DNA from: Clostridia bacterium | GTDB lineage: Bacteria; Bacillota; Clostridia; Monoglobales; Monoglobaceae | Length of the DNA stretch: 20,437 nt | Assembly: GCA_017625185.1 (NCBI GenBank) | Contig: JAGALN010000129.1 | Span: 1-20,437, forward strand | Direction: 5' to 3' | Shown here: piece after piece, positions 923-18,802 of the stretch | Numbering within the stretch: the first letter of the stretch is position 1 | Layout: each line of letters opens with the position of its first letter | Notes under the pieces: model-generated | What the model was told of the DNA's origin: nothing | The model's database searches: none | Seen by the model: only the letters and a program-made list of their open reading frames with translations | Translations under genes and position numbers: made by a program

Positions 923-939
923 GTTACATTTTGGTTACT
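923..939 (-). promoter_or_regulatory. WalR-like direct repeat upstream of the SLH gene
   Basis: The minus strand reads AGTAAC-CAAAA-TGTAAC, matching 11 of 12 defined positions of the WalR (YycF) consensus TGTWAH-N5-TGTWAH. It ends 12 bases upstream of the -35 box and overlaps the stop codon of the U32 gene. The match is seen directly; assignment to WalR is inferred, and another OmpR-family regulator with an 11-bp repeat period is possible. Confidence 0.45.
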
Positions 940-3721: not shown

Positions 3722-3750
3722 ATTCTAACATACTTTTGTCAAAAAAGCAA
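3722..3750 (-). promoter_or_regulatory. Promoter of the SLH-amidase gene
   Basis: On the minus strand, -35 TTGCTT (3745-3750) and -10 TAGAAT (3722-3727) have a 17-base spacer. A better-looking TTGACA lies inside the spacer but has no -10 at a proper distance. The predicted leader is about 60 nt. The weaker -35 fits an activator-dependent promoter. Confidence 0.6.
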
Positions 3751-3767
3751 GTTACATGTATGTTTCA
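3751..3767 (-). promoter_or_regulatory. WalR-like direct repeat abutting the amidase -35 box
   Basis: The minus strand reads TGAAAC-ATACA-TGTAAC, matching 11 of 12 positions of TGTWAH-N5-TGTWAH, and touches the -35 TTGCTT with no gap. The same placement occurs at 17184-17200. The match is direct; WalR binding is inferred from the family consensus and from the wall-hydrolase target. Confidence 0.5.
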
Positions 3768-3791
3768 GGAAACAGGATCTTTTTCCCAGCT

Positions 3792-4490
3792 CTAGAAAAA
3801 AGTGGTATAAACTACCGTAATCAGCCCCGCAACGCCCAGCGCCACACCGCTCATGGCACCCTCCACGTCGCCGATTTCGATTGCTTTTGTGGTGCCTAAG
3901 GCATGGCTGCAGGTACCAATGGCAAGACCTGCCTCCACCGGGTCCTTGACACCGAAGACACGAATCATCAGTGGCGCAAAGGCCGCACCAAAAACACCGG
4001 TAATGACCACTGCTGCCACGGTAACGGGAACCAGACCTCCTGCCTGCTCGGACAGAGAAACCGCAATGGCGGTGGTTACCGATTTGGGGAGCAGAGATGC
4101 CAACAGTTCCCGGTCCAGGAAAAAGACCCGGCAAAGAAGAATGACACAAATCATAGAAATTGCCGACCCCACCGCTGTTCCCAAGAGAACAGGGAGCCAA
4201 TTTTCTCTCAGGCGGTCAAACTGCTGATAGATTTTCACCGCAATCAACGCCGTTGCCGGTGCCAGGAAAATCTCTATCATATCTCCGCCTATCTGATAGT
4301 TTTCATAGGGGATATCAAAAAGAAGCAGAACTCCTATAATAAGCAGAAGCGAAACCAGCATGGGATTGACCAAGGGCGTTTTTGCCCTTTTGTTCATCCA
4401 GACACCGATGGCATAGGCAAACACCGTTACCGAAACGCCGAAAAGCGGTGTTGCCGTTAATCCCCTCAGGATTGTCAACAGATTATCCAC
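3792..4490 (-). CDS. lrgB: LrgB/CidB-family membrane protein
   Basis: 232 aa from a GTG start at 4490, chosen because AGGAGG (in GGGAGAGGAGGCTTCGCC) sits just before it; the frame's upstream ATG lies inside lrgA. The protein is almost wholly hydrophobic, with several predicted membrane segments. It carries the LrgB hallmarks PKSVTTAIAVSLSEQAGG (about 139-156) and the C-terminal GTCSHALGTTKAIEIGDVEGA (20 residues of it visible around 190-210). LrgAB/CidAB proteins act in the cytoplasmic membrane. They modulate murein hydrolase activity and autolysis, and later work links them to pyruvate transport. The start overlaps the lrgA stop by 8 nt, so translation is probably coupled. No convincing T-rich terminator follows. 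Which of the proposed roles applies here cannot be told from sequence. Confidence 0.92.
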   Translation of the reverse strand: MDNLLTILRGLTATPLFGVSVTVFAYAIGVWMNKRAKTPLVNPMLVSLLLIIGVLLLFDIPYENYQIGGDMIEIFLAPATALIAVKIYQQFDRLRENWLPVLLGTAVGSAISMICVILLCRVFFLDRELLASLLPKSVTTAIAVSLSEQAGGLVPVTVAAVVITGVFGAAFAPLMIRVFGVKDPVEAGLAIGTCSHALGTTKAIEIGDVEGAMSGVALGVAGLITVVYTTFF

Positions 4491-4860
4491 GGCGAAGCCT
4501 CCTCTCCCGATGCTTTTTCTGGAAATAAACCACCAACCGCACCGTATAGGCGGTAGCCGCAAAGGTCAGGACGGTGGAAAGAATGCAAATCACAAAAATC
4601 GGACCCAGGGAACTTCGGATTCTGTCGAAGCATTCCATCAATCCAACACCGGCAGGAACAAAAAAGATTGCCATGTTGTTCAAAAGAAAGTCGCTGCTTT
4701 CCTGAATCTGGGATGGTTTTACTAGCTTAAACAGAAACCCCAAAAACAACAAAACCATAGCAATTGCACTGCCGGGAAATGCAAAGGGCAATAATGCGGC
4801 AACCCCTTCGCTCATGACGCAAAGGGTAAAAATACCGGCAAGCTGTAATAATATTTTCAC
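4483..4860 (-). CDS. lrgA: LrgA/CidA-family holin-like membrane protein
   Basis: 125 aa. I place the start at the GTG at 4860 (MKILLQLAG) because GAAGAGGTG lies 6 nt upstream; a GTG three codons earlier falls on the binding site itself. About four membrane segments are predicted: about 2-22, 27-46, 58-78 and 86-112. The C-terminal tail is strongly basic (KKHRERRLRRG). Family motifs FPGSAIAMVLLF and NNMAIFFVPAGVG match PF03788. LrgA is the small, holin-like partner of LrgB and is encoded first in the pair, as usual. It stands divergent from the ypsA-like gene, with only 80 nt between start codons. I could not define a good minus-strand promoter there; a palindrome at 4907-4920 is a candidate control site. 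Confidence 0.9.
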   Translation of the reverse strand: MKILLQLAGIFTLCVMSEGVAALLPFAFPGSAIAMVLLFLGFLFKLVKPSQIQESSDFLLNNMAIFFVPAGVGLMECFDRIRSSLGPIFVICILSTVLTFAATAYTVRLVVYFQKKHRERRLRRG

Positions 4861-4880
4861 GAAATACACCTCTTCCTACA

Positions 4881-4910
4881 TTGACACTCCGGCAAAAGCT
4901 GTGTTACAAT
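4881..4910 (+). promoter_or_regulatory. Promoter of the ypsA-like gene
   Basis: A perfect -35 TTGACA (4881-4886) and -10 TACAAT (4905-4910) have an 18-base spacer. Predicted transcription starts near 4917, which excludes the upstream in-frame start codons and supports the ATG at 4941. Confidence 0.8.
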
Positions 4911-4920
4911 ACGAGTATTG
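4907..4920. promoter_or_regulatory. Palindrome in the lrgAB/ypsA divergent region
   Basis: CAATAC-GA-GTATTG is a perfect 6-bp dyad overlapping the end of the ypsA -10 box and its predicted start of transcription. It is about 47 bp from the lrgA start. The position would suit an operator acting on either gene. No regulator can be named. Confidence 0.35.
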
Positions 4921-4940
4921 ATATGAAATGGAGACCATTT

Positions 4941-5423
4941 ATGATACAGAAAAGCCTTGCCTGTTCCTTTACAGGGCACAGAATTATCGCAAAAAAATTC
5001 CGGGATACTCTGCCCGGGCAGCTGGAACGGCAAATCCGCCGCCTGATTGAAAAAGGCACAGTAGATTTCATCACCGGCGGCGCCTTGGGATTTGACACCC
5101 TTGCCGCCCAAATCGTATTAAAGCTCCGGGAGGAATTCCCCCAAATTCGTCTGGTTCTGGCTCTTCCCTGCAAAGACCAGACCCGAGGCTGGTCCTCTAT
5201 CGACAAGGCTCGGTATGAACAAATTATTCAGGCTGCTGATGTGGTTCACTATACCGGAACCCGATACACCATGGACTGCATGATGCGGCGGAATCGGTTT
5301 ATGGTGGACAACAGCGCTGCCTGTGTCTTTTTCCTGACCAATCAGCGTAGCGGCACCTACAAGACGGTAGCCTACGCCATGGAGCAGGGACTTCAGCTTT
5401 ATAATATCTTAACCGTAAAATAG
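4941..5423 (+). CDS. YpsA/DUF1273-type SLOG-domain protein
   Basis: 160 aa from the ATG at 4941, preceded by GGAG (4930-4933) with 7 nt spacing and by a strong promoter whose start point rules out longer forms. The N-terminus has the Rossmann-like SLOG signature SFTGHR (residues 9-14), and GGALGFDTLAA follows at about 46-56. SLOG proteins bind nucleotide-type ligands. In Bacillus, YpsA is linked to cell division and oxidative stress, but its biochemical activity is not established. The only plus-strand gene in the left 18 kb, it is a single-gene unit closed by a strong hairpin terminator. Family assignment is good; no specific function is claimed. Confidence 0.82.
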   Translation: MIQKSLACSFTGHRIIAKKFRDTLPGQLERQIRRLIEKGTVDFITGGALGFDTLAAQIVLKLREEFPQIRLVLALPCKDQTRGWSSIDKARYEQIIQAADVVHYTGTRYTMDCMMRRNRFMVDNSAACVFFLTNQRSGTYKTVAYAMEQGLQLYNILTVK

Positions 5424-5441
5424 AAAATCATGCCACATAAG

Positions 5442-5485
5442 ACTGCGACAAAAGGATTGGCAGAAATCCTTTTGTCGCAGTTTTT
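5442..5485 (+). terminator. Strong hairpin terminator between the ypsA-like gene and mnmG
   Basis: A perfect 17-bp stem (5442-5458 with 5465-5481, GACTGCGACAAAAGG type) with a 6-nt loop is followed by five T on the plus strand. It ends the ypsA-like transcript. On the minus strand the hairpin begins at the mnmG stop codon (5484-5486), but the bases after it (CTTATG) are not T-rich. There it may act as a weaker terminator or as 3'-end protection for the long operon transcript. Confidence 0.85.
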
Positions 5486-7364
5486 AGTTTGTCTTTAAAT
5501 AAATCATCAAAACGGCGATATCTGCCGGGGATACTCCCGAAATCCGAGACGCCTGCCCCAGGGATTCCGGACGAATCTTATCCAACTTCTGCCGCGCCTC
5601 AAGGCGAAGACCATCCAGATTCAAATAATCAATCTCCTTAGGGAGCTTTTTCGCCTCCAACTTTTTCAGCTGCTCTGCCTGGGACATTTGCCGGTTGATG
5701 TATCCCTCATACTTGATGGAAATCTCCGCCTGCTCCCAAACCTCTTTTGATAAATCGGGGCGGTCCCGGTCAAAGGGCGCCAATCCCGGGTAATCCACCT
5801 GGGGTCTTTTCAGCAGCTCCGCCATCCGGATTCCCGATTGCAAAGGGGTGCTCCCCACCGATGCCAGATATTCCTGCAATTCCTTAACAGGAGAAAGACT
5901 TACCTTTTCCAACCTGGCAATCTCTTCTGCAATCTGCTCCTTTTTCTCCAGGAACGCCTGATATCGTTCCTCCGAAATTAAGCCGATTTCATAACCCAGT
6001 GGAGTCAATCGCAAATCCGCATTGTCCTGCCGGAGCAGGAGCCGGTACTCAGACCGGGAGGTCATCATCCGGTAGGGTTCATTGGTCCCCTTGGTGACCA
6101 AATCGTCAATCAGGGTCCCAATGTAGGCTTCGGAGCGGTCCAACACCACCGGCGGCTTCCCGGTCAGCTTTCTTGCGGCATTAATGCCGGCAATCAAGCC
6201 CTGTGCCGCCGCCTCCTCGTATCCTGAGGTGCCGTTAAACTGTCCGGCACCATAAAGTCCCGGAATCTTCTTCATTTCCAGGGATGGCTGCAGCTGCAAC
6301 GGGTCGGCACAATCGTACTCGATGGCATAGGCATTCCGCATAACCTGGGCATGCTCAAACCCGGGCAGGGAATGAATCATATCCAGCTGAACATCCTCCG
6401 GCATACTGCTGGAGAACCCCTGGAGATACATCTCCTCGGTGTTAAGACCCATGGGCTCCACAAAGAGCTGATGCCGTTCCTTGTCCTTGAACCGGACAAT
6501 TTTATCCTCAATAGAGGGACAATATCTGGGTCCAATTCCCTTGATATCCCCGCCATAAAGAGGGGAACGGTGAAGATTATCCAGAATAATCTGTTTGGTT
6601 TTTTCATTGGTGTATGTTACATAGCAAACCGCCTGATTCTGCATTTCTCCTTTGGTTTCAAAGGAGAAGGGCGTGATTTCCTCATCCCCCTCTTGCAGCT
6701 CCAGCTTGGAAAAGTCAATGCTCCTGCGGTTAATCCTTGGCGGGGTTCCGGTTTTGAACCGAACCAGCTCGACTCCGATTCGCTGCAGGTTTTTGGAAAG
6801 CTCGGTGGCAGGAAAGACTCCGTCCGGGCCGCTCTCCTGACTGAATTCGCCAATGATAATCCGGGCCTTTAGATAGGTGCCGGTACAGAGGATTGCCGCC
6901 TTACAAAGGTATTCGGCACCGCTTCGTGCAATCACCGATCGGACGCTACCTGTATCGTCCAGCGTCACATCCACAATCTCTGCTTGACGGAGATCCAGAT
7001 TTTCGGCAAGCTCCAGCCGGTGCTTCATGTCCGCCTGATAGTTCCGCCGGTCAATCTGGGCACGGAGGGAATGAACTGCCGGCCCTTTTCCACGGTTTAG
7101 GATACGGGACTGGATAAAGGTAGCGTCCGCCGCCTTCCCCATTTCGCCGCCCAAGGCGTCAATCTCCCGAACCAGATGTCCCTTTGCCGTACCTCCAATG
7201 CTGGGGTTACAGGGCAGGTTTGCCACACCGTCTAAACTGATGGAAAACAAGCAGGTACGAAGTCCCAGCCGGGACGCCGCCAACGCCGCTTCAATTCCGG
7301 CATGTCCAGCACCCACCACTGCAATATCATAAGTATCCGCAATAAACAAACGCTCACCTTCCAT
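5484..7364 (-). CDS. mnmG: MnmG (GidA), tRNA U34 carboxymethylaminomethyl synthase subunit
   Basis: 626 aa, the usual length. The FAD-binding motif [12 protein letters not shown] is at about residues 18-29. [14 protein letters not shown] and [11 protein letters not shown] hold the two conserved family cysteines. PPRI and the C-terminal [16 protein letters not shown] region are also typical. With MnmE, MnmG adds the (carboxymethyl)aminomethyl group at C5 of wobble uridine in several tRNAs, using FAD, NADH and methylene-tetrahydrofolate. It is last in an eleven-gene operon, 17 nt after fhs. In many Bacillota mnmG lies in an mnmE-mnmG-rsmG cluster; here no rsmG follows and mnmE is not adjacent. 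The ATG start has only a weak binding site (AGAAG). A TTG five codons later, after GGTGAG, is an alternative. Confidence 0.97.
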
Positions 7365-7381
7365 CTTCTATCTTCTGTCTT

Positions 7382-9058
7382 TTAGAACAATCCTGTAATG
7401 GTCCCATTTTCGTCAATATCCATCCGGTTTGCCGCAGGAACCGCCGGCAGACCCGGCATGGTCATCACATCACCAGTCAGGGCAACCACAAATCCGGCAC
7501 CTGCCGATACCCGCACCTCACGAACGGTAATGGTGAAGTTTTCCGGTCTTCCCAAAAGCTTGGGGTTATCCGACAGAGAATACTGGGTCTTTGCCATACA
7601 AACTGGAATCTTATCAAAGCCCAAAGCGGTCAGCTGCTTGATTTCGTTTTCCGCCTTGGCAGTATAGCTCACATCATTGGCTCCGTAAATCTTCTGGGCA
7701 ATGGCGAGAATTTTCTCCTTGATGGGGAGTTTTTCATCGTAAATGGGAGCAAAGCTTTCACTGCCGTCTGCCTTTTCAATGGTTTCCACTACCTTATTGG
7801 CAAGGTCAATGCCGCCGGCACCGCCCTTGGCAAAGACTTCACACAAGGAAACGGTAACATCCTTTTCCTTGCAGTAGTCCTCTACCAGCTTAAGCTCGCT
7901 ATCTGCATCAGTACCAAACCGGTTGATAGCAACCACCACCGGAAGACCGTACTTCTGCATATTCTCAATATGGGCACCTAAATTTACAATACCCTTTTTC
8001 AGTGCCTCCAGATTCTCCTCTGCAAGCTCCGCCTTGGGAACACCGCCGTTGTACTTCAAGGCACGGATGGTAGCCACCAGAACCACCATGCTGGGTTTGA
8101 GGTCCCCGTACCGGCACTTGATATCAAAGAACTTCTCTGCACCTAAGTCAGAGCCAAAGCCTGCCTCGGTGATACAATAGTCTGCCAGTTTCAAGCCTAG
8201 CTTGGTTGCCTGCACCGAGTTACAGCCGTGGGCAATGTTGGCAAAGGGTCCGCCGTGCATCAGGCAGGGGGTGTTTTCCAAAGTCTGGACCAGATTCGGC
8301 TTAATGGCATCCTTTAGAAGAAGTGCCATAGCACCAGCAACCTCCAGCTGATCTGCCCGCACCGGCTCGCCGTCCATGTTATAACCCACAACAATTCTGC
8401 CAAGGCGTGCTTTTAAATCTTCCATATCATCTGCCAAACAGAGAATCGCCATAATCTCACTAGCAACGGTAATCATAAACCCGTCCTCTCTGGGAAAGCC
8501 GTTGACCTTTCCCCCAAGTCCTACCACAACCTGACGGAGAGCACGGTCATTCATATCAAGACACCGTTTCCAGGTAATCCGTCTTGCATCCAGCCGGAGG
8601 GCATTGCCCTGATGGATGTGGTTGTCAATGGCAGCAGAGAGTAGGTTGTTCGCCGCCGTGATGGCGTGCATATCCCCGGTAAAGTGGAGGTTGATGTCTT
8701 CCATGGGAACCACCTGCGCATAGCCGCCGCCGGCAGCACCGCCCTTGACGCCCATCACCGGACCCATAGAGGGTTCCCGCAGGGCGATAATCGCTTTCTT
8801 TCCAATCTGTGCCATTGCCTGGCCCAACCCCACCGTGGTGGTGGTTTTGCCCTCTCCGGCAGGAGTGGGGTTGATGGCAGTCACCAGAATCAGTTTCCCT
8901 TCGGGACGGTCCTTCACCGCCGCTTGAACCTCCTGACCCAGCTTTGCCTTATACTTGCCGTAAAACTCCAGATGGTCTTCGGAGATATTCAGCGCTGCTG
9001 CGACCTCCTTGATGGGTTTCATGACTGCGCTTTGCGCAATTTCAATATCAGTTTTCAT
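7382..9058 (-). CDS. fhs: Formate-tetrahydrofolate ligase
   Basis: 558 aa, typical for the bacterial single-function enzyme. It has the P-loop-like [11 protein letters not shown] (about 66-76), the first family signature [11 protein letters not shown] (about 103-113) and the second, [12 protein letters not shown] (about 329-340). It makes 10-formyl-tetrahydrofolate from formate, ATP and tetrahydrofolate, in the cytoplasm. The product feeds purine and formyl-methionine synthesis and, after reduction, methylene-tetrahydrofolate. In acetogens it is part of the methyl branch of the Wood-Ljungdahl pathway, but the gene alone does not show acetogenesis. A strong binding site (AAGGAGAGGAGAAGG) precedes the ATG. 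It stands 30 nt after asnA and 17 nt before mnmG. Confidence 0.98.
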
Positions 9059-9088
9059 GGATTCCTTCTCCTCTCCTTGGTATTTTTC

Positions 9089-10096
9089 TTAAAGCAGGGC
9101 AATGCCTGCGGCTTTGCATTTTTCCATGGTTTCCTTATCCCAGACAGAAACCTGAACCTCACCGATGTGGGCTTTTCCCAAAAGCAACATACAGAGCCGG
9201 GATTGCCCAATTCCGCCGCCCATGGTCAGGGGCAGCATGCCCGCCAGCAATGCCCGGTGGAAGGGAAGTTCCCGCCGGTCTTCACAACCGGCTTTTTTCA
9301 GCTGTTCTGCCAAAGACGCCTGATCCACCCGAATTCCCATAGAAGAAATTTCCAAGGCGGTTTCCAGCACATCATCCCAGAACAGAATATCTCCGTTCAG
9401 CTTCCAGTCATCATAATCGGGGGCACGGCCGTCATGAGGTTTTCCTGACGCCAAAACATCGCCGATTTCCATTAAAAATACCGTTTTATGCTCCTTGGTA
9501 TAGGCAATCTCCCGCTCCTTACCGGTCATATTGGGGTACAGCTCCTCCAACTCCTGGCTGGTAACAAAGCTGACCTCCCTGGTAAGGCGGGTGGTAATCT
9601 GGGGGAACTGTTTCTTAATCTCTTCTAAGGTGTCGCAGACCGCATCCACAATCTTTTGGACGGTTGCTTTTAAGAAGTCCTTATTCCGTTCCTCCTTGGT
9701 GATAACCCGGCACCAATCCCACTGGTCTACATAGACCGAATGGATATTATCCAGGGTTTCGTCACGACGGATGGCGTTCATATCAGTGTAGATACCCTCT
9801 CCTGCCGGGAAACCGTATTTTCCCAGAGCCATCCGTTTCCACTTTGCCAAAGAGTGCACCACCTGGGCATCTGCCTTGGCGTCGGGAATATCAAAGGCAA
9901 CGGCGCGTTCAATTCCGTTCAAGTCGTCGTTGAGTCCGGAGTTGGACTCTACGAACAAGGGTGCGGTAACCCGGCGTAGGTTCAATGCCGCCGTCAGCTC
10001 CTTGACAAAATTCTCCTTGATAACCTCAATCGCCGCCTGGGTATCATAAAGGCCCAGTTTGGGGTGATACCCCCTTGGAATGGTTAATTTACTCAT
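9089..10096 (-). CDS. asnA: Aspartate-ammonia ligase (asparagine synthetase A)
   Basis: 335 aa, the normal size of AsnA. The family core is clear: PLFVESNSGLNDDLNG near residue 50, VHSLAKWKR near 81-89, GEGIYTDMNAIRRDE near 98-112, and the class-II-synthetase-like motif GGGIGQSRL near 299-307. It forms L-asparagine from aspartate, ammonia and ATP, and is related in fold to aspartyl-tRNA synthetase. The start at 10096 has AGGAGG 8 nt upstream. It lies 19 nt after the polysaccharide deacetylase gene in the operon. There is no obvious functional link to its envelope neighbours beyond co-transcription. Confidence 0.97.
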   Translation of the reverse strand: MSKLTIPRGYHPKLGLYDTQAAIEVIKENFVKELTAALNLRRVTAPLFVESNSGLNDDLNGIERAVAFDIPDAKADAQVVHSLAKWKRMALGKYGFPAGEGIYTDMNAIRRDETLDNIHSVYVDQWDWCRVITKEERNKDFLKATVQKIVDAVCDTLEEIKKQFPQITTRLTREVSFVTSQELEELYPNMTGKEREIAYTKEHKTVFLMEIGDVLASGKPHDGRAPDYDDWKLNGDILFWDDVLETALEISSMGIRVDQASLAEQLKKAGCEDRRELPFHRALLAGMLPLTMGGGIGQSRLCMLLLGKAHIGEVQVSVWDKETMEKCKAAGIALL

Positions 10097-10115
10097 GATA
10101 CACTTCCTCCTGTTT

Positions 10116-11036
10116 CTATTCCCAACCCTTAAGCTGAGGAACTATCTTCTTCGCCATAGCACGGCGAACAACTTCTATTACATTTACATTTCCCATAGTG
10201 CCAGACACGGTCATTCGCACCAGTCCGTCCAGCCCCTCCGAGGGAAGGTTCACCTCGAAAGCATCCTCGGTGGTCTTATTATCCACCCAGACCTGCAACT
10301 GATAACCTGCCCTATGGGATGCAGCCGTTACTGCATCGTTATAGGAGCCATAGGGAAATGCAATCATATCACACTCATGACCAAGATTTTTTTCGATGGC
10401 ATACTTGGATTTCCGAAGCTGCAGTACCAGCTCATTGGCAGGTAAAGCTGCCAGCTCCTTATGGCTGGCGGTATGAGAATGAATCTCAATCAAGCCGCTC
10501 TCTTCCATCTCCCGTGCCTGCTCCCAGGTAAAGTGGGAGTAGTTCACCTTGCCTTCCCCTGCCATCGCACCCACCGTATCAGTGACCACGAAAATGGTAG
10601 CCGGAATCTCCAGTTCCTTTAAGATAGGGAAGGCAATCTCGTAGTTACTCAAATATCCGTCGTCAAAGGTGACAATGATGGGATTCTCCGGGAGAGTAAC
10701 ACTGCCGTCCTTGTCAAGAATATATTCATAGTACTGCCGCAAGCTGATGGGGGTGAAGTTAATCTTAATCGCCGTCATGTGCAGCCGGAAATCAGAGGGC
10801 GAAATCAGAGAAATCTCGTTCCCGCCGGAAAACGCCTCATCGGTAATATGATGGTAAAGGAGGATGGGCACCTTCACGTTCTTTTTGATCACCTTGGGTT
10901 TCTCCGGTACCGGCTCTCCCTTGAGCTGAAGCAACCAGTCGGGGGCTGTGCTTTGGGCAGCCTCTGCCACAAGGGCAGGAACGCCCGTCAAGAGCAGTGC
11001 CAGCAAGATTGCCGTCACCTTGAATATCTTCTTCAT
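10116..11036 (-). CDS. Secreted polysaccharide deacetylase (CE4/NodB)
   Basis: 306 aa. Residues 1-27 are a signal peptide (MKKIFK, a hydrophobic core, then AEAA). A linker of about 30 residues follows, then VPILLYHHI at 57-64. The NodB homology domain has the catalytic and metal-binding motif TFDDG at 123-127 and the second metal motif HSHTASH at 186-192; later FPYGSYND fits the third motif. CE4 enzymes remove N- or O-acetyl groups from peptidoglycan or other surface glycans, so the likely site of action is the cell wall. The sequence does not reveal whether the target is GlcNAc, MurNAc or another polymer. It sits between cvpA and asnA with gaps of 21 and 19 nt. The binding site GAAAGGG is 10 nt before the ATG. 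Confidence 0.92.
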   Translation of the reverse strand: MKKIFKVTAILLALLLTGVPALVAEAAQSTAPDWLLQLKGEPVPEKPKVIKKNVKVPILLYHHITDEAFSGGNEISLISPSDFRLHMTAIKINFTPISLRQYYEYILDKDGSVTLPENPIIVTFDDGYLSNYEIAFPILKELEIPATIFVVTDTVGAMAGEGKVNYSHFTWEQAREMEESGLIEIHSHTASHKELAALPANELVLQLRKSKYAIEKNLGHECDMIAFPYGSYNDAVTAASHRAGYQLQVWVDNKTTEDAFEVNLPSEGLDGLVRMTVSGTMGNVNVIEVVRRAMAKKIVPQLKGWE

Positions 11037-11057
11037 AGCATCAAAACCCTTTCTGTT

Positions 11058-11696
11058 TTATTTCCCGAAAGAGGATTCCTCCTTCGGTGTCAGTATCTTC
11101 AAAATTGGATTGCTCCTATACAGACTCCGGGTTACCATGGATTGTTCAATGGCATAGCCCAGAGGTTTGTTATCACGCAGAGGCGGCGCCACATAACAGA
11201 CCGCCAAAAGAACGCAGACAATCAAAAGTCCCTCCAAAAGACCGATTGCCATTCCTGCCAGACGGTTCACAAGCCCAAGCACCGGCAGGGATGCAACAAA
11301 ATGCAGAATCTTTCCGGCAAAAAAGAGAAGTATCCTTGCCAAAACCAGAATCAACAGAAAAGAAACGCCGTTTAAGAGGAGCCTTGCAAAATACTCTGCC
11401 GCCGCAGCTCCGGCGGCCGCAGTTCCCTCCTCCAGCATCTGCTGAAGAAATCCCGCCTCTGTGGCAGACTGGGCTCCTACGGGTGCCTTTTCTGCCACCG
11501 AAGAAAATAAGCTCTCATAAAAAGGGGTCTTTTGCAAAAACGCCGCCAGGTAGGGGTGAAACACCCAAGCCAGGACCAATGCCGCCAGATGAGATACCAG
11601 CCGGAACCCCATCTTCACAAGGCCGTTCTTCCATCCCAAAAAGGCAAAGATTCCCACAATGGTCAGAACCGCAAGATCCATTTCGCTCCGCAGCAT
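11058..11696 (-). CDS. CvpA-family membrane protein
   Basis: 212 aa with four hydrophobic segments at about 7-23, 32-50, 108-127 and 146-170. An Ala/Glu-rich, probably extracytoplasmic region lies between the second and third segments. The N-terminal pattern DLAVLTIVGIFAFLGWKNGL and the GLVNRLAGMAIGLLEGLL stretch are typical of the CvpA (colicin V production) family. E. coli CvpA is needed for colicin V export and affects purF expression and envelope properties; no molecular activity is agreed. The start at 11696 has GAAGGGGG 7 nt upstream. It lies 22 nt after the DUF5711 gene and before the deacetylase, in an apparent envelope subgroup of the operon. Confidence 0.85.
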   Translation of the reverse strand: MLRSEMDLAVLTIVGIFAFLGWKNGLVKMGFRLVSHLAALVLAWVFHPYLAAFLQKTPFYESLFSSVAEKAPVGAQSATEAGFLQQMLEEGTAAAGAAAAEYFARLLLNGVSFLLILVLARILLFFAGKILHFVASLPVLGLVNRLAGMAIGLLEGLLIVCVLLAVCYVAPPLRDNKPLGYAIEQSMVTRSLYRSNPILKILTPKEESSFGK

Positions 11697-11718
11697 TGTT
11701 ACGCCCCCTTCTTTTTTG

Positions 11719-12894
11719 TTACTTCATCCAGATAATGTCTGCCTCGGTACTGCCCGCCGCAAAGCATGCCTTCCCGTTCCCAAAGATGCTCACCTCTTTG
11801 ATGTCATGATTACAGGAACTCTGCTTTTTCAGCTTACCGTTCCGCTTGATTTGCAGAACGTCCCGTTGTTTGGCAGCCACCACCGTATCCCCGCAAACGG
11901 CCAGGGTAGTAACCGGACTGTCTGCCATGTAGCTACCCACCAGCTTGCCACGGAGATTGTAGAGTTCCAACACCGCATTGCCCAGATGGTCATAGGCAGA
12001 AAACGCCAAAACCTCATCGCTGGAAATATCATACTTTCCGGGACGTTTCCCGGCAAAGGAAACCTGATAGAGCAGTTTCCCGTTCCCCGAAAAGCCACAT
12101 AACTCTCCGTCCGATACCGTCAGGAGCTTTGTCCCGGAAAACCGGACCTCTCCAACAATCGTTCCGGTGCGTTCAGCCGTTCGAATCACCTTTTTTTGAT
12201 ATAAATCAATGAACTGGATTTTGGAATCTGCCTGGGCCCCCTCGCTGGAGAGCTGTGCTACCGCCAGATAGTGTCCGTTGTCGCTGATATCCAAATCCAT
12301 AATGTATCCGTCGCCGCTATTCCACCGGAACAATTCTCTTCCCTTTTTGTCAATCACGGCAACACTGCCTTTATACCCATCTGCCGCCGTGGCAATGGCT
12401 ACCGTTCCCTTTTTGTTCACCTTGGCAGAAATGATATCCTTGGTAATCTGATAGTCCCGTACCACCTCACCGTTTCGGTAGAGAGTTGCGGCATGGTTTC
12501 CTGCCAAATCCGCTGCCAGAACATAAGCGCCGCCCTGTTCCACCAATGGCGAGGAAAGGGATAAATCCACTGACCAACGAGTTTCCCCTTTGTGGTTTAT
12601 CACCTTCATATTCTGGTTGTTATAAAGAAGGAGTTCTTTTTGAAAAGGCTGCATGGCATAGTTACTACCCGCCCGGAACCCCAAATCAATGGTGCGGGTC
12701 CGATGGGCGGGAAGCATCAAGAGCTGAATCAAAAGGGCAAGAAGAACCAAAGCTCCTGCCGCCAAAGCGGCGAGCTTCAACGGAAAGAAGGTCATCTTCT
12801 TTCCCCGAATCGAAACCGTGACCGGCAGGTTCCATCCCGCCAGAAGCCACTGGTTTGCCTTCATATGTTCATTTCCTTTTCTTGATTTTTTCAT
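11719..12894 (-). CDS. DUF5711-family membrane-anchored beta-propeller-like protein
   Basis: 391 aa. A basic N-terminus (about 1-35) is followed by one transmembrane helix at about 37-61, and then roughly 325 residues predicted outside the cell. That part is made of repeated beta-strand patterns of the form GNGKLLYQVSF, KGRELFRWNSG and GETRWSVDLS, as in propeller blades. The pattern fits DUF5711 proteins, which occur in Clostridia and often stand beside cvpA; their function is unknown. The gene starts 2 nt after the truA stop (TAACCATG), with AAGGAA overlapping the truA end, so translation is probably coupled. A second ATG at 12864, preceded by AAAGGAAA, would remove ten basic residues and is equally possible. 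I infer a sensing or scaffold role only from topology. Confidence 0.78.
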   Translation of the reverse strand: MKKSRKGNEHMKANQWLLAGWNLPVTVSIRGKKMTFFPLKLAALAAGALVLLALLIQLLMLPAHRTRTIDLGFRAGSNYAMQPFQKELLLYNNQNMKVINHKGETRWSVDLSLSSPLVEQGGAYVLAADLAGNHAATLYRNGEVVRDYQITKDIISAKVNKKGTVAIATAADGYKGSVAVIDKKGRELFRWNSGDGYIMDLDISDNGHYLAVAQLSSEGAQADSKIQFIDLYQKKVIRTAERTGTIVGEVRFSGTKLLTVSDGELCGFSGNGKLLYQVSFAGKRPGKYDISSDEVLAFSAYDHLGNAVLELYNLRGKLVGSYMADSPVTTLAVCGDTVVAAKQRDVLQIKRNGKLKKQSSCNHDIKEVSIFGNGKACFAAGSTEADIIWMK

Positions 12895-12896
12895 GG

Positions 12897-13661
12897 TTAT
12901 TCCTTGCTTTCCCGAAAATCATAATAGACCTTTTTCAAAAACAATCCCTGGGGCGGGGCAGTCATGCCACACCGTTTCCGGTCGCAACTCGCCAAGATGG
13001 CAGGCAACTCTTCGACCCGGATTCTGTGAAGACCAATCTCCACCAGCGTGCCGGTGATAATCCGCACCATGTTATACAAAAACGCATCCGCCTCCACCGT
13101 GATGGTAATCAGTTCCCTCTGTTCCGGATCCCGTTCCACCCGACACAGACGAACTGTCCGCACAGTGGTTTTCTGGCTCCCGCCGGCTGCCATAAAAGAG
13201 GAAAAGTCATGAGTCCCCTCCAAGATAGGTGCCGCCGCAATCATGGCATCCACATCCAGCCGGTAGGGCATCTGCCAACTATATCTTGACACAAAAGGAT
13301 TCCGGAGCCCGCTATTCCAGATGCGGTAGATATACCGTTTCCCCTTGGCGGAAAACCGGGCATGAAACTCCTCTGGCATCTCCCAGGCAGAAAGCGCCGA
13401 AATGTCCTTGGGGAGATGATAGTTCAAGGCATAGGGGAGCCGCTCGGTTGGAATTTCGGTTCCGGAATGGAAATGGAACAGATATTCCATAGCGTGAACC
13501 CCTGCATCGGTACGGCTGCAACCGGTAATCTCCACAGTTTCTCCGGTTAGCGCCGAAAGAGCAGTTTCCACCGCCTGCTGCACCGAAATGCCGTTCTTCT
13601 GCCGCTGCCAGCCATGGTAGTTGGTACCGTCATAGCGAATCAGCATTGCAATATTTTTCAT
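12897..13661 (-). CDS. truA: tRNA pseudouridine synthase A
   Basis: 254 aa, usual length. It has MLIRYDGTNYHGWQRQ at the N-terminus, and the catalytic aspartate is D52 in GCSRTDAGVHA. The second conserved block, ADAFLYNMVRIITGTL, is near residues 192-207. TruA converts U38-U40 of the anticodon stem-loop to pseudouridine in many tRNAs. It follows ecfT with a single base between stop and start (TAG-T-ATG). The ecfA1-ecfA2-ecfT-truA order is the common Bacillota arrangement, usually inside the ribosomal protein cluster; here no ribosomal protein genes flank it. Confidence 0.97.
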   Translation of the reverse strand: MKNIAMLIRYDGTNYHGWQRQKNGISVQQAVETALSALTGETVEITGCSRTDAGVHAMEYLFHFHSGTEIPTERLPYALNYHLPKDISALSAWEMPEEFHARFSAKGKRYIYRIWNSGLRNPFVSRYSWQMPYRLDVDAMIAAAPILEGTHDFSSFMAAGGSQKTTVRTVRLCRVERDPEQRELITITVEADAFLYNMVRIITGTLVEIGLHRIRVEELPAILASCDRKRCGMTAPPQGLFLKKVYYDFRESKE

Positions 13662-13662
13662 A

Positions 13663-14475
13663 CTAGATCACCTTACCAAACAGGAAATTGGCGGCAAAGA
13701 CCAATGCCACAAGTGCCAAAAACGAAATCCCTGCACCCAAATCCTTCTTCCCGTACAGAAGCTCCTTGAACCGGGTCCGGTTTTCGCCCCCACGGTAGCA
13801 CCGGCATTCCATTGCCGTTGCCAGTTCGTCCGCTCTCCGGAAGGCACTGATAAAGAGGGGAACCAGAATCGGCACCATTGCCTTGGCACGGCGAAGGATG
13901 TTCCCGCTTTCAAAATCAGCACCTCGTGCCGATTGGGCTTTCATAATCTTATCGGTTTCCTCCATGAGAATGGGGATAAACCGCAGGGCAATGGACATCA
14001 TCATTGCCAGCTCATGGGCAGGAACTCCAACCTTCCGCAAGGGACGGAGGAGTCGCTCCATACCATCGGTCAAGGCGATGGGGGAGGTGGTCAGGGTCAA
14101 AAGGGATGTCCCCACCATCAAAAACACCAACCGCAACACCATAAAGGCGGCAAAGTAGATACCCTGTCGGGTGATGGAGAAAATCCACCAGGAAAATACC
14201 ACATCGCCCCGGGTCAGGAACAGATTGAACAAACCGGTAATGACCACAAAGACCAGAATCGGCTTGAGTCCTTTTAAAACAAACTTCGGGGGGACCTTGG
14301 AAACCAGAATACACCCCACGGTAAACGCCGCCAAAAGGAGATACCCTATGAAGTTTTCAATCAAAAAAGTCAGGACAATATAACACAGAACCAGCAAAAT
14401 CTTGGTTCTCGGGTCCAGGCGATGAATCACACTACTTCCCGGAAAGTACTGTCCCAAGGTAATATCCTTTAGCAT
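13663..14475 (-). CDS. ecfT: ECF transporter transmembrane subunit EcfT
   Basis: 270 aa with several hydrophobic segments. The conserved N-terminal block GQYFPGSSVIHRLDPRTK is present. The ARG motif (SARGAD, near 186-190) and a second, variant motif (CRCYRGG, near 225-231) lie in the coupling helices that contact the two ATPases. EcfT joins EcfA1 and EcfA2 into the energising module of energy-coupling-factor vitamin and metal-ion importers. Its start overlaps the ecfA2 stop by 7 nt (ATGCTAA). No substrate-binding S subunit is in the window, so this is a group II module that would be shared by S subunits encoded elsewhere. Confidence 0.95.
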   Translation of the reverse strand: MLKDITLGQYFPGSSVIHRLDPRTKILLVLCYIVLTFLIENFIGYLLLAAFTVGCILVSKVPPKFVLKGLKPILVFVVITGLFNLFLTRGDVVFSWWIFSITRQGIYFAAFMVLRLVFLMVGTSLLTLTTSPIALTDGMERLLRPLRKVGVPAHELAMMMSIALRFIPILMEETDKIMKAQSARGADFESGNILRRAKAMVPILVPLFISAFRRADELATAMECRCYRGGENRTRFKELLYGKKDLGAGISFLALVALVFAANFLFGKVI

Positions 14476-15332
14476 ATCGGTTGCTCCTTTAAGTTCATCA
14501 AATCACAAAGCTGACGGTAGGCGTCCTCCACAGTATAGATTCCCTCACCCAGATTCACACCGTTCTCCCGCAGACCGTCCATGACCTGGGTAATCTGGGG
14601 AATGTTGAGTCCAATCTCCGTCAGGCGTTTCCCCTGCCGGAAGACCGCCGCCGTTTTGTCCAGCATCTCCACTTTTCCATGGTTCATGACCAAAATCCGG
14701 TCGGCAAGCTTTGCCACATCCTCCATGCTGTGAGAAACCAGTATTACGGTCATATCCATCCGCTCGTGCATATCCTTGATCTTGCAAAGAATTTCGTCCC
14801 GCCCGGCAGGGTCCAGCCCCGCTGTGGGTTCGTCTAGAATCAAAACCTTGGGTTCCATGGCAAGAACGCCGGCAATGGCAACACGCCGTTTCTGTCCGCC
14901 GGATAAATCAAAGGGGGATTTCTCCAAAAGCTCTGGGGAAAGTCCCACCATATTGGCAACATAGGCAACCCGCTCCGCAATCTCCTCTTTGGGGAGTCCC
15001 ATATTGGAGGGTCCATAGGCAATGTCCTTTGCCACCGTTTCTTCAAAGAGCTGATACTCCGGATACTGCATCACCAACCCAACCTCAAACCGAAGCTGTT
15101 GCAGATTGGTAGACTTCTCCCCCAGAACCTTTCCGTTTACGGTAATGGTACCGGAGGTGGGTTTGAGCAGACCGTTGAGCATCTGGATCAGGGTGGACTT
15201 TCCCGAGCCGGTATGTCCAATCAATCCAATGAACTCCCCTTTGTGAATCTCCAGGGAGATATGGTCAAGGGCGGTCTTTTCAAAAGGTCCCCCCTGCATA
15301 TAAACATAACTGACATCTTCCAGTTTTATCAT
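14469..15332 (-). CDS. ecfA2: ECF transporter ATPase EcfA2
   Basis: 287 aa from ATG at 15332 (MIKLEDVSYVY), chosen because AGGTGAG lies 5 nt upstream; a GTG three codons earlier follows the ecfA1 stop directly and lacks a site. Walker A is GHTGSGKS (39-46), the signature LSGGQKRR, Walker B ILDEPTAGLDP and the switch histidine SHSMEDV. The Q-loop has QYPEYQLFEE, typical of EcfA2. The C-terminal extension beyond the nucleotide-binding domain, common in Ecf ATPases, is present. It pairs with EcfA1 to power vitamin or metal import through EcfT. It starts 9 nt after ecfA1 ends and overlaps ecfT. Confidence 0.95.
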   Translation of the reverse strand: MIKLEDVSYVYMQGGPFEKTALDHISLEIHKGEFIGLIGHTGSGKSTLIQMLNGLLKPTSGTITVNGKVLGEKSTNLQQLRFEVGLVMQYPEYQLFEETVAKDIAYGPSNMGLPKEEIAERVAYVANMVGLSPELLEKSPFDLSGGQKRRVAIAGVLAMEPKVLILDEPTAGLDPAGRDEILCKIKDMHERMDMTVILVSHSMEDVAKLADRILVMNHGKVEMLDKTAAVFRQGKRLTEIGLNIPQITQVMDGLRENGVNLGEGIYTVEDAYRQLCDLMNLKEQPIC

Positions 15333-15341
15333 TTTGCTCAC

Positions 15342-16199
15342 CTATTTGTTTTCTTTTGTAAGCCTTTCTGTCAAAGCCCTGATACAATCCCGGGGATTTA
15401 AAATATCCGCCGGCAAACCGGCACCGCTTCGATTGAGCAGATAGACAAGCTCTGTTGCCTGGGGTGTATCCAGACCAAGTCGCTTTAACTCCTCCACCTT
15501 GGGGAACACCGTATCGGGGGTTCCCTCCATGGCAATCACGCCACGATCTACTACAATCACCCGGTCAGCCAGGACCGCTTCATCCATATAATGTGTAATC
15601 AGCACCACGGTCATTCCATGCTTTTCTTTCAGTTCCCGGATGGTAGCCAAAATCTCTTTCCGCCCTGCCGGGTCCAGCATAGCAGTAGGTTCGTCCAGCA
15701 CCAGAATGTCCGGACGCATGGCAAGAACGCCGGCAATGGCAATTCTCTGCTTCTGTCCGCCCGAGAGCATATGGGGCGCATGGTCACGAAAGGCAACCAT
15801 ATTCACAGCCGAAAGTGCCTCATCCACCCGCTGCCGAATTTCGGCAGGGGGAACACCTAGATTCTCCGGGGCAAAGGCAACATCCTCTTCCACAATATTG
15901 GCAACCATCTGGTTGTCAGGGTTCTGGAAGACCATGCCCACCTTTTGGCGAATCTCATAGAGCAGATTTTCATCCGCCGTATCCATCCCCTCCACCAGCA
16001 CCCTGCCCTCGGTGGGGGTCAGGATGGCATTCAGATGTTTTGCCAGGGTGGATTTCCCCGAGCCGTTATGTCCCAATACTGCCAGAAACTCTCCCCGTTT
16101 TACCTCCATGGTAATTCCACGAAGGACCGGAACCTCTTCACCGGTTTCCTCGCTTGGGTAAGAGAACCGAAGATTTTCTATCTTGATTACCGTTTCCAA
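15342..16199 (-). CDS. ecfA1: ECF transporter ATPase EcfA1
   Basis: 285 aa from a TTG start at 16199 (reading METVIKIENL), with GAAGGTG 5 nt before it. The open frame runs further upstream but would overlap the methyltransferase gene and adds no family sequence. Walker A is GHNGSGKS (43-50), the Q-loop QNPDNQ, the signature LSGGQKQR, Walker B LVLDEPTAMLDP and the switch ITHYMDE. The Met in TAMLDP, where EcfA2 has Gly, matches the EcfA1 class. It forms the ATPase heterodimer with EcfA2. It is preceded by the methyltransferase gene with a 16-nt gap. The rare TTG start could lower its translation relative to ecfA2. Confidence 0.94.
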   Translation of the reverse strand: METVIKIENLRFSYPSEETGEEVPVLRGITMEVKRGEFLAVLGHNGSGKSTLAKHLNAILTPTEGRVLVEGMDTADENLLYEIRQKVGMVFQNPDNQMVANIVEEDVAFAPENLGVPPAEIRQRVDEALSAVNMVAFRDHAPHMLSGGQKQRIAIAGVLAMRPDILVLDEPTAMLDPAGRKEILATIRELKEKHGMTVVLITHYMDEAVLADRVIVVDRGVIAMEGTPDTVFPKVEELKRLGLDTPQATELVYLLNRSGAGLPADILNPRDCIRALTERLTKENK

Positions 16200-16215
16200 T
16201 GTGACACCTTCTTTG

Positions 16216-17094
16216 TTATTTCTCCGCCTGCCAGCGGGTGCTGTACCCGCAGGGCAGAACCAAACCTCCGTGGGCAACGGGGAGTCCAACCTCCTGAATT
16301 TCGGTAGCACCGCCGAACTGCTTTTCCAGAGTCAAGGAGATGACGTTCTTCATAATCTGTCCCGAAAGTCCGGTGGTATAGGTATTGATTAAAAAGAACA
16401 AGGGATGCTCGGACAGAACCTTGGTGCATAGCTCCACCAAGCCGAAAAGCTCCTGCTCCAGCTTCCAAAGCTCTCCATTGGGACCTCTGCCATAAGAGGG
16501 CGGGTCCATAATCACACCGTCGTACCTTCTGCCCCGGCGAAGCTCCCGCTCCACAAACTTCTTTACATCATCCACCAGATACCGGATGGGTCTTTCCTGC
16601 AATCCGGAAAGAGCCGCATTCTCCTTTGCCCAGTTGACCATCCCCTTGGCAGCATCCACATGACAAACCGATGCACCTGCCGCCGATGCCGCAATGGTGG
16701 CACCGCCGGTATAGGCAAAGAGATTCAACACATTCACGTCATTTCGTCCGCTCTTTTTTATGATATCAGAAAACCAATCCCAGTTGGCTGCCTGCTCCGG
16801 GAAAAGTCCGGTATGCTTAAACCCCATGGGCTTGATGCCGAACTTCAGGTTCCGGTAGGAAACCGTCCAGGAGTCCGGGAGCTTGTGATAAACCTCCCAT
16901 CGGCCGCCGCCGCTGCTGCTCCGGATATACCGGGCATCTGCCGATTTCCAGAGAGGCGATCTCTCCCCCTCCGGAAGGGACCAGACAATCTGTGGGTCGG
17001 GGCGAATCAGCAGATGTTCCCCCCAGCGTTCCAGCTTTTCGCCTCTGTCACAATCAATCAATTCATAATCCTTCCAACCGTCTGCAAGAAACAT
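16216..17094 (-). CDS. Class I SAM-dependent rRNA methyltransferase, RlmI-like without PUA domain
   Basis: 292 aa from ATG at 17094, after AAAAGGTGGTGG with 6 nt spacing; an upstream TTG lacks a site. A beta-rich N-terminal part (about 1-95) is followed by GLFPEQAANWDW, then the SAM-binding motif NLFAYTGGATIAASAAGA (about 128-145), the acidic VDAAKGMVNWAKEN, and the catalytic motif MDPPSYGRG (near 197-205). This is the COG1092 pattern of RlmI (23S rRNA m5C1962 in E. coli). RlmI carries an N-terminal PUA RNA-binding domain that I do not recognise here, so the exact target is uncertain. It is the first gene of the eleven-gene operon, next to a strong promoter. Confidence 0.85.
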   Translation of the reverse strand: MFLADGWKDYELIDCDRGEKLERWGEHLLIRPDPQIVWSLPEGERSPLWKSADARYIRSSSGGGRWEVYHKLPDSWTVSYRNLKFGIKPMGFKHTGLFPEQAANWDWFSDIIKKSGRNDVNVLNLFAYTGGATIAASAAGASVCHVDAAKGMVNWAKENAALSGLQERPIRYLVDDVKKFVERELRRGRRYDGVIMDPPSYGRGPNGELWKLEQELFGLVELCTKVLSEHPLFFLINTYTTGLSGQIMKNVISLTLEKQFGGATEIQEVGLPVAHGGLVLPCGYSTRWQAEK

Positions 17095-17154
17095 CTTCTG
17101 CCACCACCTTTTTATTTCAAACCCTCGATAAATCAATATTTTTAGAGATAGTAT

Positions 17155-17183
17155 ATTATATCACCTTTTGCGTCAATCGTCAA
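17155..17183 (-). promoter_or_regulatory. Promoter of the eleven-gene operon
   Basis: On the minus strand, -35 TTGACG (17178-17183) and a perfect -10 TATAAT (17155-17160) have a 17-base spacer. The predicted start of transcription is near 17148, about 54 nt before the first start codon. It is the only strong promoter recognised ahead of the run of genes down to mnmG. The same TTGACG-N17-TATAAT pattern drives the YabE-like gene. Confidence 0.85.
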
Positions 17184-17200
17184 GTTACGGTGTGGTTACA
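17184..17200 (-). promoter_or_regulatory. WalR-like direct repeat abutting the operon -35 box
   Basis: The minus strand reads TGTAAC-CACAC-CGTAAC and then continues without a gap into the -35 TTGACG. It matches 11 of 12 positions of TGTWAH-N5-TGTWAH. Placement is identical to the amidase promoter box, a position where OmpR-family regulators can contact RNA polymerase. Confidence 0.5.
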
Positions 17201-18553: not shown

Positions 18554-18593
18554 AATTTTGGTTATTGTGCAATACAAAATTATCTGGTATACT
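18554..18593 (+). promoter_or_regulatory. Candidate yabB promoter with enclosing dyad
   Basis: -35 TTGTGC (18565-18570) and -10 TATACT (18588-18593) have a 17-base spacer, with a predicted start near 18600. The -35 lies between the inverted arms AATTTTG (18554-18560) and CAAAATT (18575-18581), and inside a smaller dyad ATTG-TG-CAAT (18564-18573). A second possible -10, TATAAT at 18726-18731, lacks a good -35. Confidence 0.5.
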
Positions 18594-18599
18594 AGAAAA

Positions 18600-18802
18600 G
18601 GAGGTTTTTTTCTCCCCAAAAAGAAAATGTTACAGCTGTGTTACAAAAAAGTTCCGGATAGCGGAAACCCGCTAAAACTCAAGACTTTTTCAAGGTCCGG
18701 GAACACAAAAGACTCTGTTTTGTTTTATAATCGGCGATTTGCACAAAAGACCTTTAATTTTACGATAAATCGTATGAAAATTCAGTTTTAGGAGAGATTA
18801 TT
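18600..18802 (+). promoter_or_regulatory. Long structured leader of yabB
   Basis: If the promoter at 18565 is used, the leader is about 200 nt. It contains GTTCCGG (18651-18657) pairing with CCGGGAAC (18697-18704, one bulge). Enclosed is AGCGG-AAAC-CCGCT (18660-18673). A competing 7-bp pairing joins AAAAAGT (18646-18652) and ACTTTTT (18684-18690). ACAAAA/TTTTGT (18705-18723) and the palindrome TACGAT-AA-ATCGTA (18761-18774) follow, the latter shortly before the AGGAGAG ribosome site. I do not recognise a known riboswitch class. A short frame at 18546-18791 crosses it but looks non-coding. Confidence 0.4.
18628..18645. promoter_or_regulatory. Perfect WalR-like repeat in the yabE/yabB intergenic region
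   Basis: TGTTAC-AGCTG-TGTTAC on the plus strand matches all 12 positions of TGTWAH-N5-TGTWAH. Because TGTTACA is the complement of TGTAACA, the minus strand also matches fully (TGTAAC-ACAGC-TGTAAC). It lies just downstream of the candidate yabB promoter, where bound protein would repress, and about 210 bp upstream of the yabE-like -35. Confidence 0.5.

What the first reader, a model, noticed from the sequence alone, without database searches (positions are those of the whole stretch)
3722..17200. Identical WalR-box/-35 junction at the SLH-amidase promoter and the eleven-gene operon promoter
On the minus strand TGAAAC-N5-TGTAAC runs straight into -35 TTGCTT (3745-3767), and TGTAAC-N5-CGTAAC runs straight into -35 TTGACG (17178-17200). 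Both match 11 of 12 defined positions of the published WalR consensus TGTWAH-N5-TGTWAH, in the same orientation and with zero gap to the -35. WalR controls wall hydrolases in Bacillus and Staphylococcus, and one target here is a wall amidase. The second target would put an ECF transporter module, CvpA, a deacetylase, asnA, fhs and mnmG under the same signal, which I do not know to be described. Under equal base composition a chance 11/12 match is roughly 6 in 100,000 per position and strand, so a hit in a given short promoter region is unlikely. I scanned only the intergenic regions by eye.
Basis: partly seen in the sequence, partly recalled or inferred. Interest (0 to 1): 0.72.

Follow-up and report, generated by a model that had tools for sequence, protein, structure and literature searches.

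The report
WalR-type boxes abutting two promoters
Both DNA boxes exist and this bacterial family does appear to run a cell-wall control system with such boxes, but these two copies are weak and missing from close relatives, so one (the wall amidase) is a plausible target, the eleven-gene operon is not shown to be one, and a stronger conserved box lies elsewhere in the window.

Summary
In detail: TGAAAC-N5-TGTAAC and TGTAAC-N5-CGTAAC each abut the -35 of a 17-bp-spaced promoter. Genome-wide, 11/12 matches are no commoner than a control (145 vs 132).

A WalR-like regulon is still likely. Strict TGTAAY-N5-TGTAAY gives 351 hits against 27 control in 37 family genomes, with conserved promoter positions at mreB and ftsZ. 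A WalR-like regulator is in 36 of 36 relatives, apart from the best WalK-like kinase; it was not found in the window's incomplete genome.

The two sites are not conserved. The operon box is absent from both same-genus promoters examined and not clearly above shuffles in 29 relatives; the amidase box is missing at that place in 3 of 3 same-genus genomes, though amidase promoters of relatives carry boxes above shuffle. So the amidase is plausible, the operon unsupported.

Unexpected: the zero-gap junction recurs in a sister genus at multicopy loci with a covarying RNA leader and a ~27-aa hydrophobic peptide.

The parts
3751..3767 (-). WalR-type box, 11/12: TGAAAC-ATACA-TGTAAC, zero gap to the -35
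   Evidence: matrix score 13.5 against a training median of 29.7; missing at this place in 3 of 3 same-genus promoters
3722..3750 (-). promoter of the SLH-amidase gene: TTGCTT-17-TAGAAT, extended -10
   Evidence: the core resembles same-genus L047 by eye
2231..3652 (-). SLH-domain N-acetylmuramoyl-L-alanine amidase (start read as ATG 3652 after GAGGTG)
   Evidence: Amidase_3 and SLH hits; start from the ribosome site and in relatives
17184..17200 (-). WalR-like match, 11/12: TGTAAC-CACAC-CGTAAC, zero gap to the -35
   Evidence: matrix score 9.2, below the 1st percentile (12.3) of perfect boxes; not conserved
17155..17183 (-). promoter of the eleven-gene operon: TTGACG-17-TATAAT, extended -10
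   Evidence: the same TTGACG-17-TATAAT stands upstream of the same gene in same-genus L063 and L064, without the box
5484..17094 (-). eleven-gene operon: SAM methyltransferase, two ECF ATPases, EcfT, truA, DUF5711, cvpA, polysaccharide deacetylase, asnA, fhs, mnmG
   Evidence: Pfam; first start read as ATG 17094, as in relatives
18628..18645 (.). best box in the window, 12/12 on both strands (TGTTACAGCTGTGTTACA / TGTAACACAGCTGTAACA); not mentioned in the finding
   Evidence: score 29.2; a box in the corresponding region in 4 of 4 genus genomes
18565..18593 (+). promoter TTGTGC-17-TATACT read towards the methyltransferase at 18803; the box lies 34 bp downstream of its -10
   Evidence: strongly conserved in 4 of 4 genus genomes
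17248..18297 (-). G5/3D-domain protein, divergent from 18803; box about 211 bp upstream of its -35
   Evidence: TTGACG-17-TATAAT at 18417-18389, minus strand, read
923..939 (-). 11/12 match AGTAAC-CAAAA-TGTAAC, 12 bp upstream of TTGACT-17-TAAAAT before an SLH protein gene
   Evidence: no >=11/12 site at the corresponding place in L366 or L368

Best explanation
This clostridial family (near Ructibacterium and Monoglobus) has a WalR-type response regulator that binds 11-bp-spaced TGTAAY repeats. Shown by sequence: the boxes are enriched; they are held at fixed positions downstream of the -10 of mreB and 27-28 bp upstream of the -35 of ftsZ in the genus; and they recur at other envelope genes. 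Inferred: that the WalR-like protein is the binder, and that it activates from upstream of the -35 and represses from within or downstream of the promoter. In the window, 18629-18645 is the box best supported. The amidase site (3751-3767) is most likely a weak, lineage-specific activating site of this regulator, since the amidase gene family carries boxes in several sister genera. The operon site (17184-17200) is most likely a chance or very recent match, so joint control of the ECF-cvpA-mnmG operon is not established.
For: Strict box: 351 hits against 27 for the backward control, more hits than control in 37 of 37 family genomes; own genome 6 vs 0. Of 15 own-genome loci with perfect TGTWAH boxes, six precede envelope or division genes (mreB, ftsZ, murA, an FtsK-like gene, two SLH proteins) and one is 18628-18645 (gene names read by eye). 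mreB: 12/12 box in 15 of 29 relatives against a shuffle mean of 0.14; same position in 4 of 4 genus genomes. ftsZ: gaps 27, 27, 27, 28 in 4 of 4 genus genomes. WalR-like regulator in 36 of 36 relatives, 312-340 bits, 2 of 36 at the 340 cut-off; YycF is its best NCBIfam model by about 66 bits in the two proteins tested. SLH-amidase, both strands: 12/12 in 5 of 29 and >=11/12 in 15 of 29 against shuffle means 0.23 and 3.64, 0 of 200 shuffles reaching either; sense strand only: 2 of 29 (1 of 200 shuffles reach it) and 10 of 29 (0 of 200). Position rule in S. aureus: PMC10746227 (passages).
Against: 11/12 matches are at background genome-wide. Eight of the 15 own-genome loci with perfect boxes are not at envelope genes that I could name: veg, rsmA, a TetR gene, an anaerobic ribonucleotide-reductase-like gene, and four without a clear target. 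Both sites of the finding are absent from same-genus orthologous promoters (3 of 3 amidase, 2 of 2 operon). Perfect boxes are followed by A in 122 of 146 cases; both sites have T there. No WalR-like gene found in the own genome. The best solved-structure match of the WalR-like protein is RegX3 (212 bits), with YycF present only as receiver-domain entries (162 bits). Shuffles treat related genomes as independent, and the amidase boxes of relatives lie at other positions. No binding data.
Confidence: 0.55

Rival explanations
1. Both 11/12 sites are chance matches; only 18629-18645 in this window is a true box.
For: Genome-wide 11/12 rate equals the control; both sites score far below perfect boxes; neither is conserved in the genus.
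Against: 4 of 5 intergenic regions carry a >=11/12 site, 0 of 400 shuffles; related amidase promoters carry boxes above shuffle, and each of the three same-genus amidase upstream regions has an 11/12 match elsewhere within 250 bp; both sites abut good promoters with a layout seen elsewhere in the family.
Confidence: 0.3
2. One reading: WalR jointly controls the amidase and the eleven-gene operon through zero-gap boxes.
For: Composite TGTAACN5TGTAACTTG at <=1 mismatch: 48 hits (35 with TTG intact) in 37 genomes against 3 backward; in the own genome only mreB and these two sites. Zero-gap boxes lie at promoters elsewhere. Boxes upstream of the -35 go with activation in S. aureus.
Against: I chose the composite after seeing these two sites, and many of its hits belong to one multicopy locus family; in 790,746 bases of one relative, zero gap was no commoner (2) than 20 bp (2), other gaps giving 0 or 1; the operon promoter lacks the box in same-genus relatives and is not clearly above shuffle; its second half-site begins with C.
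Confidence: 0.15
3. The boxes belong to a different OmpR-family regulator, such as the RR-A/kinase pair on contig 145, not to the WalR-like protein.
For: RR-A is the only such regulator that two queries found in the own genome and its best NCBIfam model is also YycF (257 bits); OmpR-family half-sites resemble each other (recalled). In the same-genus loci L151-L153 the WalR-like gene has no perfect box upstream.
Against: RR-A scores about 60 bits lower than the WalR-like protein and barely above MtrA; its 250 bp upstream have a 12/12 box in 0 of 29 relatives, whereas the WalR-like gene has a strict box upstream in at least 7 of 11 genomes of one sister genus.
Confidence: 0.15

Closest known systems
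WalRK (YycFG/VicRK) regulon of Bacillota
   Same: TGTWAH-N5-TGTWAH box (consensus quoted in PMC9210968); envelope targets; box positions that fit activation and repression; a YycF-like regulator
   Different: The WalR-like gene is not next to the best WalK-like match in 36 of 36 draft relatives and has a box upstream in at least 7 of 11 genomes of one sister genus (not in three same-genus loci), whereas wal operons are reported as not autoregulated (PMC9210968); mreB and ftsZ are prominent predicted targets
WalRK of Clostridioides difficile
   Same: Clostridial Wal system; same consensus used there; deacetylase pgdA and asnB respond to WalR overexpression there
   Different: walA-walR-walK-truA2 operon there; here the WalR-like gene is followed by an rlmH-like gene in three same-genus loci, named by eye. 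In C. difficile intergenic DNA one mismatch raises hits from 29 to 522, the weakness seen here too
S. aureus WalR regulon by ChIP-seq
   Same: Upstream of the -35 activates, within or downstream represses; dnaA among the targets (PMC10746227, passages)
   Different: Consensus TGTHH-N6-WGTNDD there; strict TGTAAY halves mostly followed by A here

Membership tests
WalR box/regulon | two TGTWAH half-sites 11 bp apart | tested here: met
   11/12 at both sites, 12/12 at 18629-18645
WalR box/regulon | motif enriched in the host genome | tested here: inconclusive
   strict form 6 vs 0 in the own genome and 351 vs 27 in 37 genomes; 11/12 form not enriched, 145 vs 132
WalR box/regulon | site conserved at the orthologous promoter: operon | tested here: not met
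   absent in 2 of 2 same-genus promoters; 12/12 in 1 of 29 relatives
WalR box/regulon | site conserved at the orthologous promoter: amidase | tested here: not met
   not at that place in 3 of 3 genus relatives; 11/12 or 12/12 matches at other positions in 15 of 29 relatives
WalR box/regulon | site conserved: 18628-18645 | tested here: met
   box in the corresponding region in 4 of 4 genus genomes
WalR (YycF) protein | score above NF040534 cut-off of 340 bits | tested here: inconclusive
   36 of 36 relatives at 312-340 bits, 2 of 36 at the cut-off, own genome none
WalRK operon | walR and walK adjacent | tested here: not met
   best WalK-like match on another contig in 35 of 36 relatives and about 32 kb away in 1 (searches compared; most genomes are drafts); WalK cut-off reached in 0 of 37
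WalR box/regulon | binding by phosphorylated WalR and expression response | not testable with these tools
   needs protein and cells

The most novel reading that the evidence does not exclude
In this family a WalR-like regulator, split from its kinase and autoregulated in at least one genus, drives a promoter class in which its box abuts the -35. That class includes multicopy loci encoding a covarying RNA leader and a ~27-aa hydrophobic, toxin-like peptide with an opposing transcript, tying envelope stress to small membrane peptides. In the window's species the same junction has been newly recruited to a wall amidase and to an ECF/CvpA/tRNA-modification operon.
Probability: 0.2. Interest if true: 0.7.

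Novelty: new member of a known kind. Interest (0 to 1): 0.42.

Why it matters
It extends a WalR-type regulon, which I recall as studied mainly in Bacilli and lately in C. difficile, to a family of gut clostridia known largely from draft genomes, with the regulator and kinase genes apart and with mreB, ftsZ and a DnaA-box region as predicted targets. It also shows how weak one-mismatch WalR matches are as evidence, and how promoter comparison sorts them. The junction search led to a structured RNA and peptide locus family whose leader matched nothing in Rfam.

Tried and rejected
Structure prediction and fold search were not run, because the question is about DNA sites. Rfam on the window: nothing at the gathering score. 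Rfam on 14 junction loci: three tRNAs and one drum RNA, none on the leader; two leader loci at a relaxed threshold: chance-level hits plus the drum RNA.

Idea rejected: zero gap is the general layout of this regulon. Of 147 distinct strict boxes in the loci then held, 68 had a promoter called; the commonest box-to-(-35) gaps are -52 (12) and -63 (9), that is downstream of the -10, then 10 (6) and 27 (3); zero gap occurs once. Nearly all those loci were found by the box itself, so the counts describe layout, not frequency. Idea rejected: the 923-939 site is a conserved SLH-gene box.

The upstream comparisons used the loci that the tools returned: 30 amidase loci of 37 genomes with a match, 30 methyltransferase loci of 49, 30 mreB loci of 35; the own locus was dropped from each, leaving 29.

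Literature: Monoglobus + WalR gave 3 papers, which look to be about gut microbiota (listing and abstract starts only). Type I toxin-antitoxin + Clostridia + hydrophobic peptide + WalR gave 4 papers holding at least three of the terms (listing only). Papers: PMC9210968 passages; PMC7299342 passages; PMC10746227 passages; all others seen only as search listings.
Full report
What is there. The two sites are as described. Each abuts a promoter with a 17-bp spacer and an extended -10. The amidase start is best read as ATG 3652 and the first operon gene as ATG 17094, since relatives share the ribosome-site context. The operon has eleven genes by Pfam: SAM methyltransferase, two ECF ATPases, EcfT, truA, DUF5711, cvpA, polysaccharide deacetylase, asnA, fhs, mnmG. 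lrgA and lrgB lie upstream of the amidase.

Is it more than chance? In the window there are 5 hits against 1.54 expected, 5 of 100 shuffles reaching 5. By region, shuffles give a hit in 2.8% (amidase) and 4.3% (operon) of trials; 4 of 5 intergenic regions have one, which 0 of 400 shuffles match. I stretched one of those regions into coding sequence to include its site. So the sites as a group look unusual, but each alone only mildly so.

Is there a regulon? In all likelihood yes. The strict form TGTAAY-N5-TGTAAY gives 351 hits against 27 for its backward control over 37 family genomes, with more hits than control in each of the 37 (tandem triples count twice). I looked at 15 own-genome loci with perfect TGTWAH boxes: six precede envelope or division genes (mreB, ftsZ, murA, an FtsK-like gene, two SLH proteins), one is the window's 18628-18645 site, four precede veg, rsmA, a TetR gene and an anaerobic ribonucleotide-reductase-like gene, and four have no clear target (names read by eye from translations). 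The mreB box sits just downstream of a TTGACA-17-TAAAAT promoter in 4 of 4 genus genomes, and 15 of 29 relatives have a 12/12 box within 150 bp against 0.14 in shuffles. The ftsZ box lies 27, 27, 27 and 28 bp upstream of the -35 in the four genus genomes. In S. aureus, boxes upstream of the -35 go with activation and boxes between or downstream of -35 and -10 with repression (PMC10746227, passages); by that rule mreB would be repressed and ftsZ activated. These modes are inferred.

The regulator. A response regulator scoring 312-340 bits to the YycF model (cut-off 340) is in 36 of 36 relatives and was not found in the own genome. The own genome is 72.6% complete and also lacks a hit to the RlmH family; an rlmH-like gene, named by eye, follows the regulator in the same-genus loci L151, L152 and L153. 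NCBIfam ranks YycF first for this protein by about 66 bits in the two cases tested; among solved structures its best match is RegX3, and YycF is there only as a receiver domain. A WalK-like kinase is in 37 of 37 genomes at E <= 1e-50 but never over its cut-off. Comparing, the best such match lies on another contig than the regulator in 35 of 36 relatives and about 32 kb away in one; most are drafts. In at least 7 of the 11 genomes of one sister genus a strict box lies about 100-130 bp before the regulator gene; in the same-genus loci L151-L153 none does. The C. difficile paper states that wal operons are not autoregulated (passage).

Are the two sites members? I compared upstream regions of orthologues. 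Operon: of 29 relatives, 1 has a 12/12 and 3 a >=11/12 box within 250 bp; 12 and 51 of 200 shuffles reach these values (sense strand only: 6 and 15 of 200). The two same-genus promoters keep TTGACG-17-TATAAT but have no box. Amidase: 5 of 29 have 12/12 and 15 of 29 >=11/12, which 0 of 200 shuffles reach (sense strand only: 2 and 10 of 29; 1 and 0 of 200). These boxes are at other positions, and none of the three same-genus promoters has one at the -35 junction, although each has an 11/12 match elsewhere in its 250 bp. As a control gene, RR-A has 0 of 29 and 6 of 29. The shuffles ignore relatedness. With a matrix from 143 perfect boxes, the amidase site scores 13.5, the operon site 9.2, 923-939 scores 9.0 and 18629-18645 scores 29.2, against a training median of 29.7 and 1st percentile of 12.3; the training set was chosen for perfect halves, so it penalises any mismatch. 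The base after the second half is A in 122 of 146 boxes and T at both sites.

The box not mentioned in the finding. 18628-18645 is a 12/12 match on both strands, between a G5/3D-domain gene and a methyltransferase gene. A box lies in the corresponding region in 4 of 4 genus genomes, downstream of a very conserved promoter; strict boxes also precede a gene that looks by eye like the same methyltransferase in G022, G009, G033 and G035.

The junction. The composite TGTAACN5TGTAACTTG at <=1 mismatch gives 48 hits, 35 of them with TTG intact, in 37 genomes against 3 for the control; in the own genome only mreB and the two sites of this finding. I composed it after seeing these sites, so it is no independent test for them. 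I read 29 of the loci. Zero-gap boxes precede a lipoprotein-like gene (L382) and, mostly in one sister genus, loci with TTGAAA-17-TATTAT-like promoters, a ~160-nt leader, a ~27-aa hydrophobic peptide and an opposing-strand element. The leader aligns over 12 of 15 copies with 21 of 56 predicted pairs showing double changes (some pairs lie in the coding part). In 790,746 bases of G009 all 3 leader copies found have the junction, but two lie on a contig known to hold hits and one stretch was chosen for its hit. In the same DNA, promoters with a >=11/12 box show gap 0 twice, gap 20 twice, and other gaps from 1 to 30 once or never, so zero gap is one layout among several.

Conclusion. The motif call and the WalR idea were good; the two chosen examples are weak ones. 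I put about even odds on the amidase site being bound, and about 0.15-0.25 on the operon site. Function, binding and the kinase partner remain untested.

Noticed in passing
L371, L373, L375, L376, L379, L384, L390, L394, L103, L321 (and L314 in another genus): Multicopy loci in a sister genus: WalR-type box abutting TTGAAA or TTGAAT, covarying ~160-nt RNA leader that can pair with the ribosome site, ~27-aa hydrophobic peptide, terminator-like repeat, and an opposing-strand element resembling the leader; looks like a type I toxin-antitoxin layout. L314 has the leader with a box at another distance. No Rfam match on the leader.
   Followed up: partly
L383/L395 and L389: Two further, different small hydrophobic peptide genes with the same zero-gap box/-35 junction.
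   Followed up: no
L015 1195-1402, L170 1501-1716, L192 1501-1718, L343 548-768: In all four genus genomes an intergenic stretch with two or three DnaA boxes (pattern recalled) is flanked by WalR-type boxes about 200 bp apart, beside different neighbouring genes.
   Followed up: partly
L171 1501-1517: Strict box 135 bp before a dnaA-like gene, named by eye, in G001; WalR controls dnaA in S. aureus (PMC10746227, passages).
   Followed up: no
window 18560-18593 with L110, L177, L342: About 35 bp around the TTGTGC-TATACT promoter are nearly identical in four genus genomes, more than a promoter needs; it holds a TATTGTGCAATA palindrome.
   Followed up: no
G001 contig 23, 2761-4223: A WalK-like match ends about 155 bp before the mreB match with a strict box between them.
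   Followed up: no
L036, L037, L042-L044, L053-L056, L098, L099: In one sister genus a strict box lies in the intergenic region between the SLH amidase and a divergent gene that looks by eye like glyceraldehyde-3-phosphate dehydrogenase.
   Followed up: no
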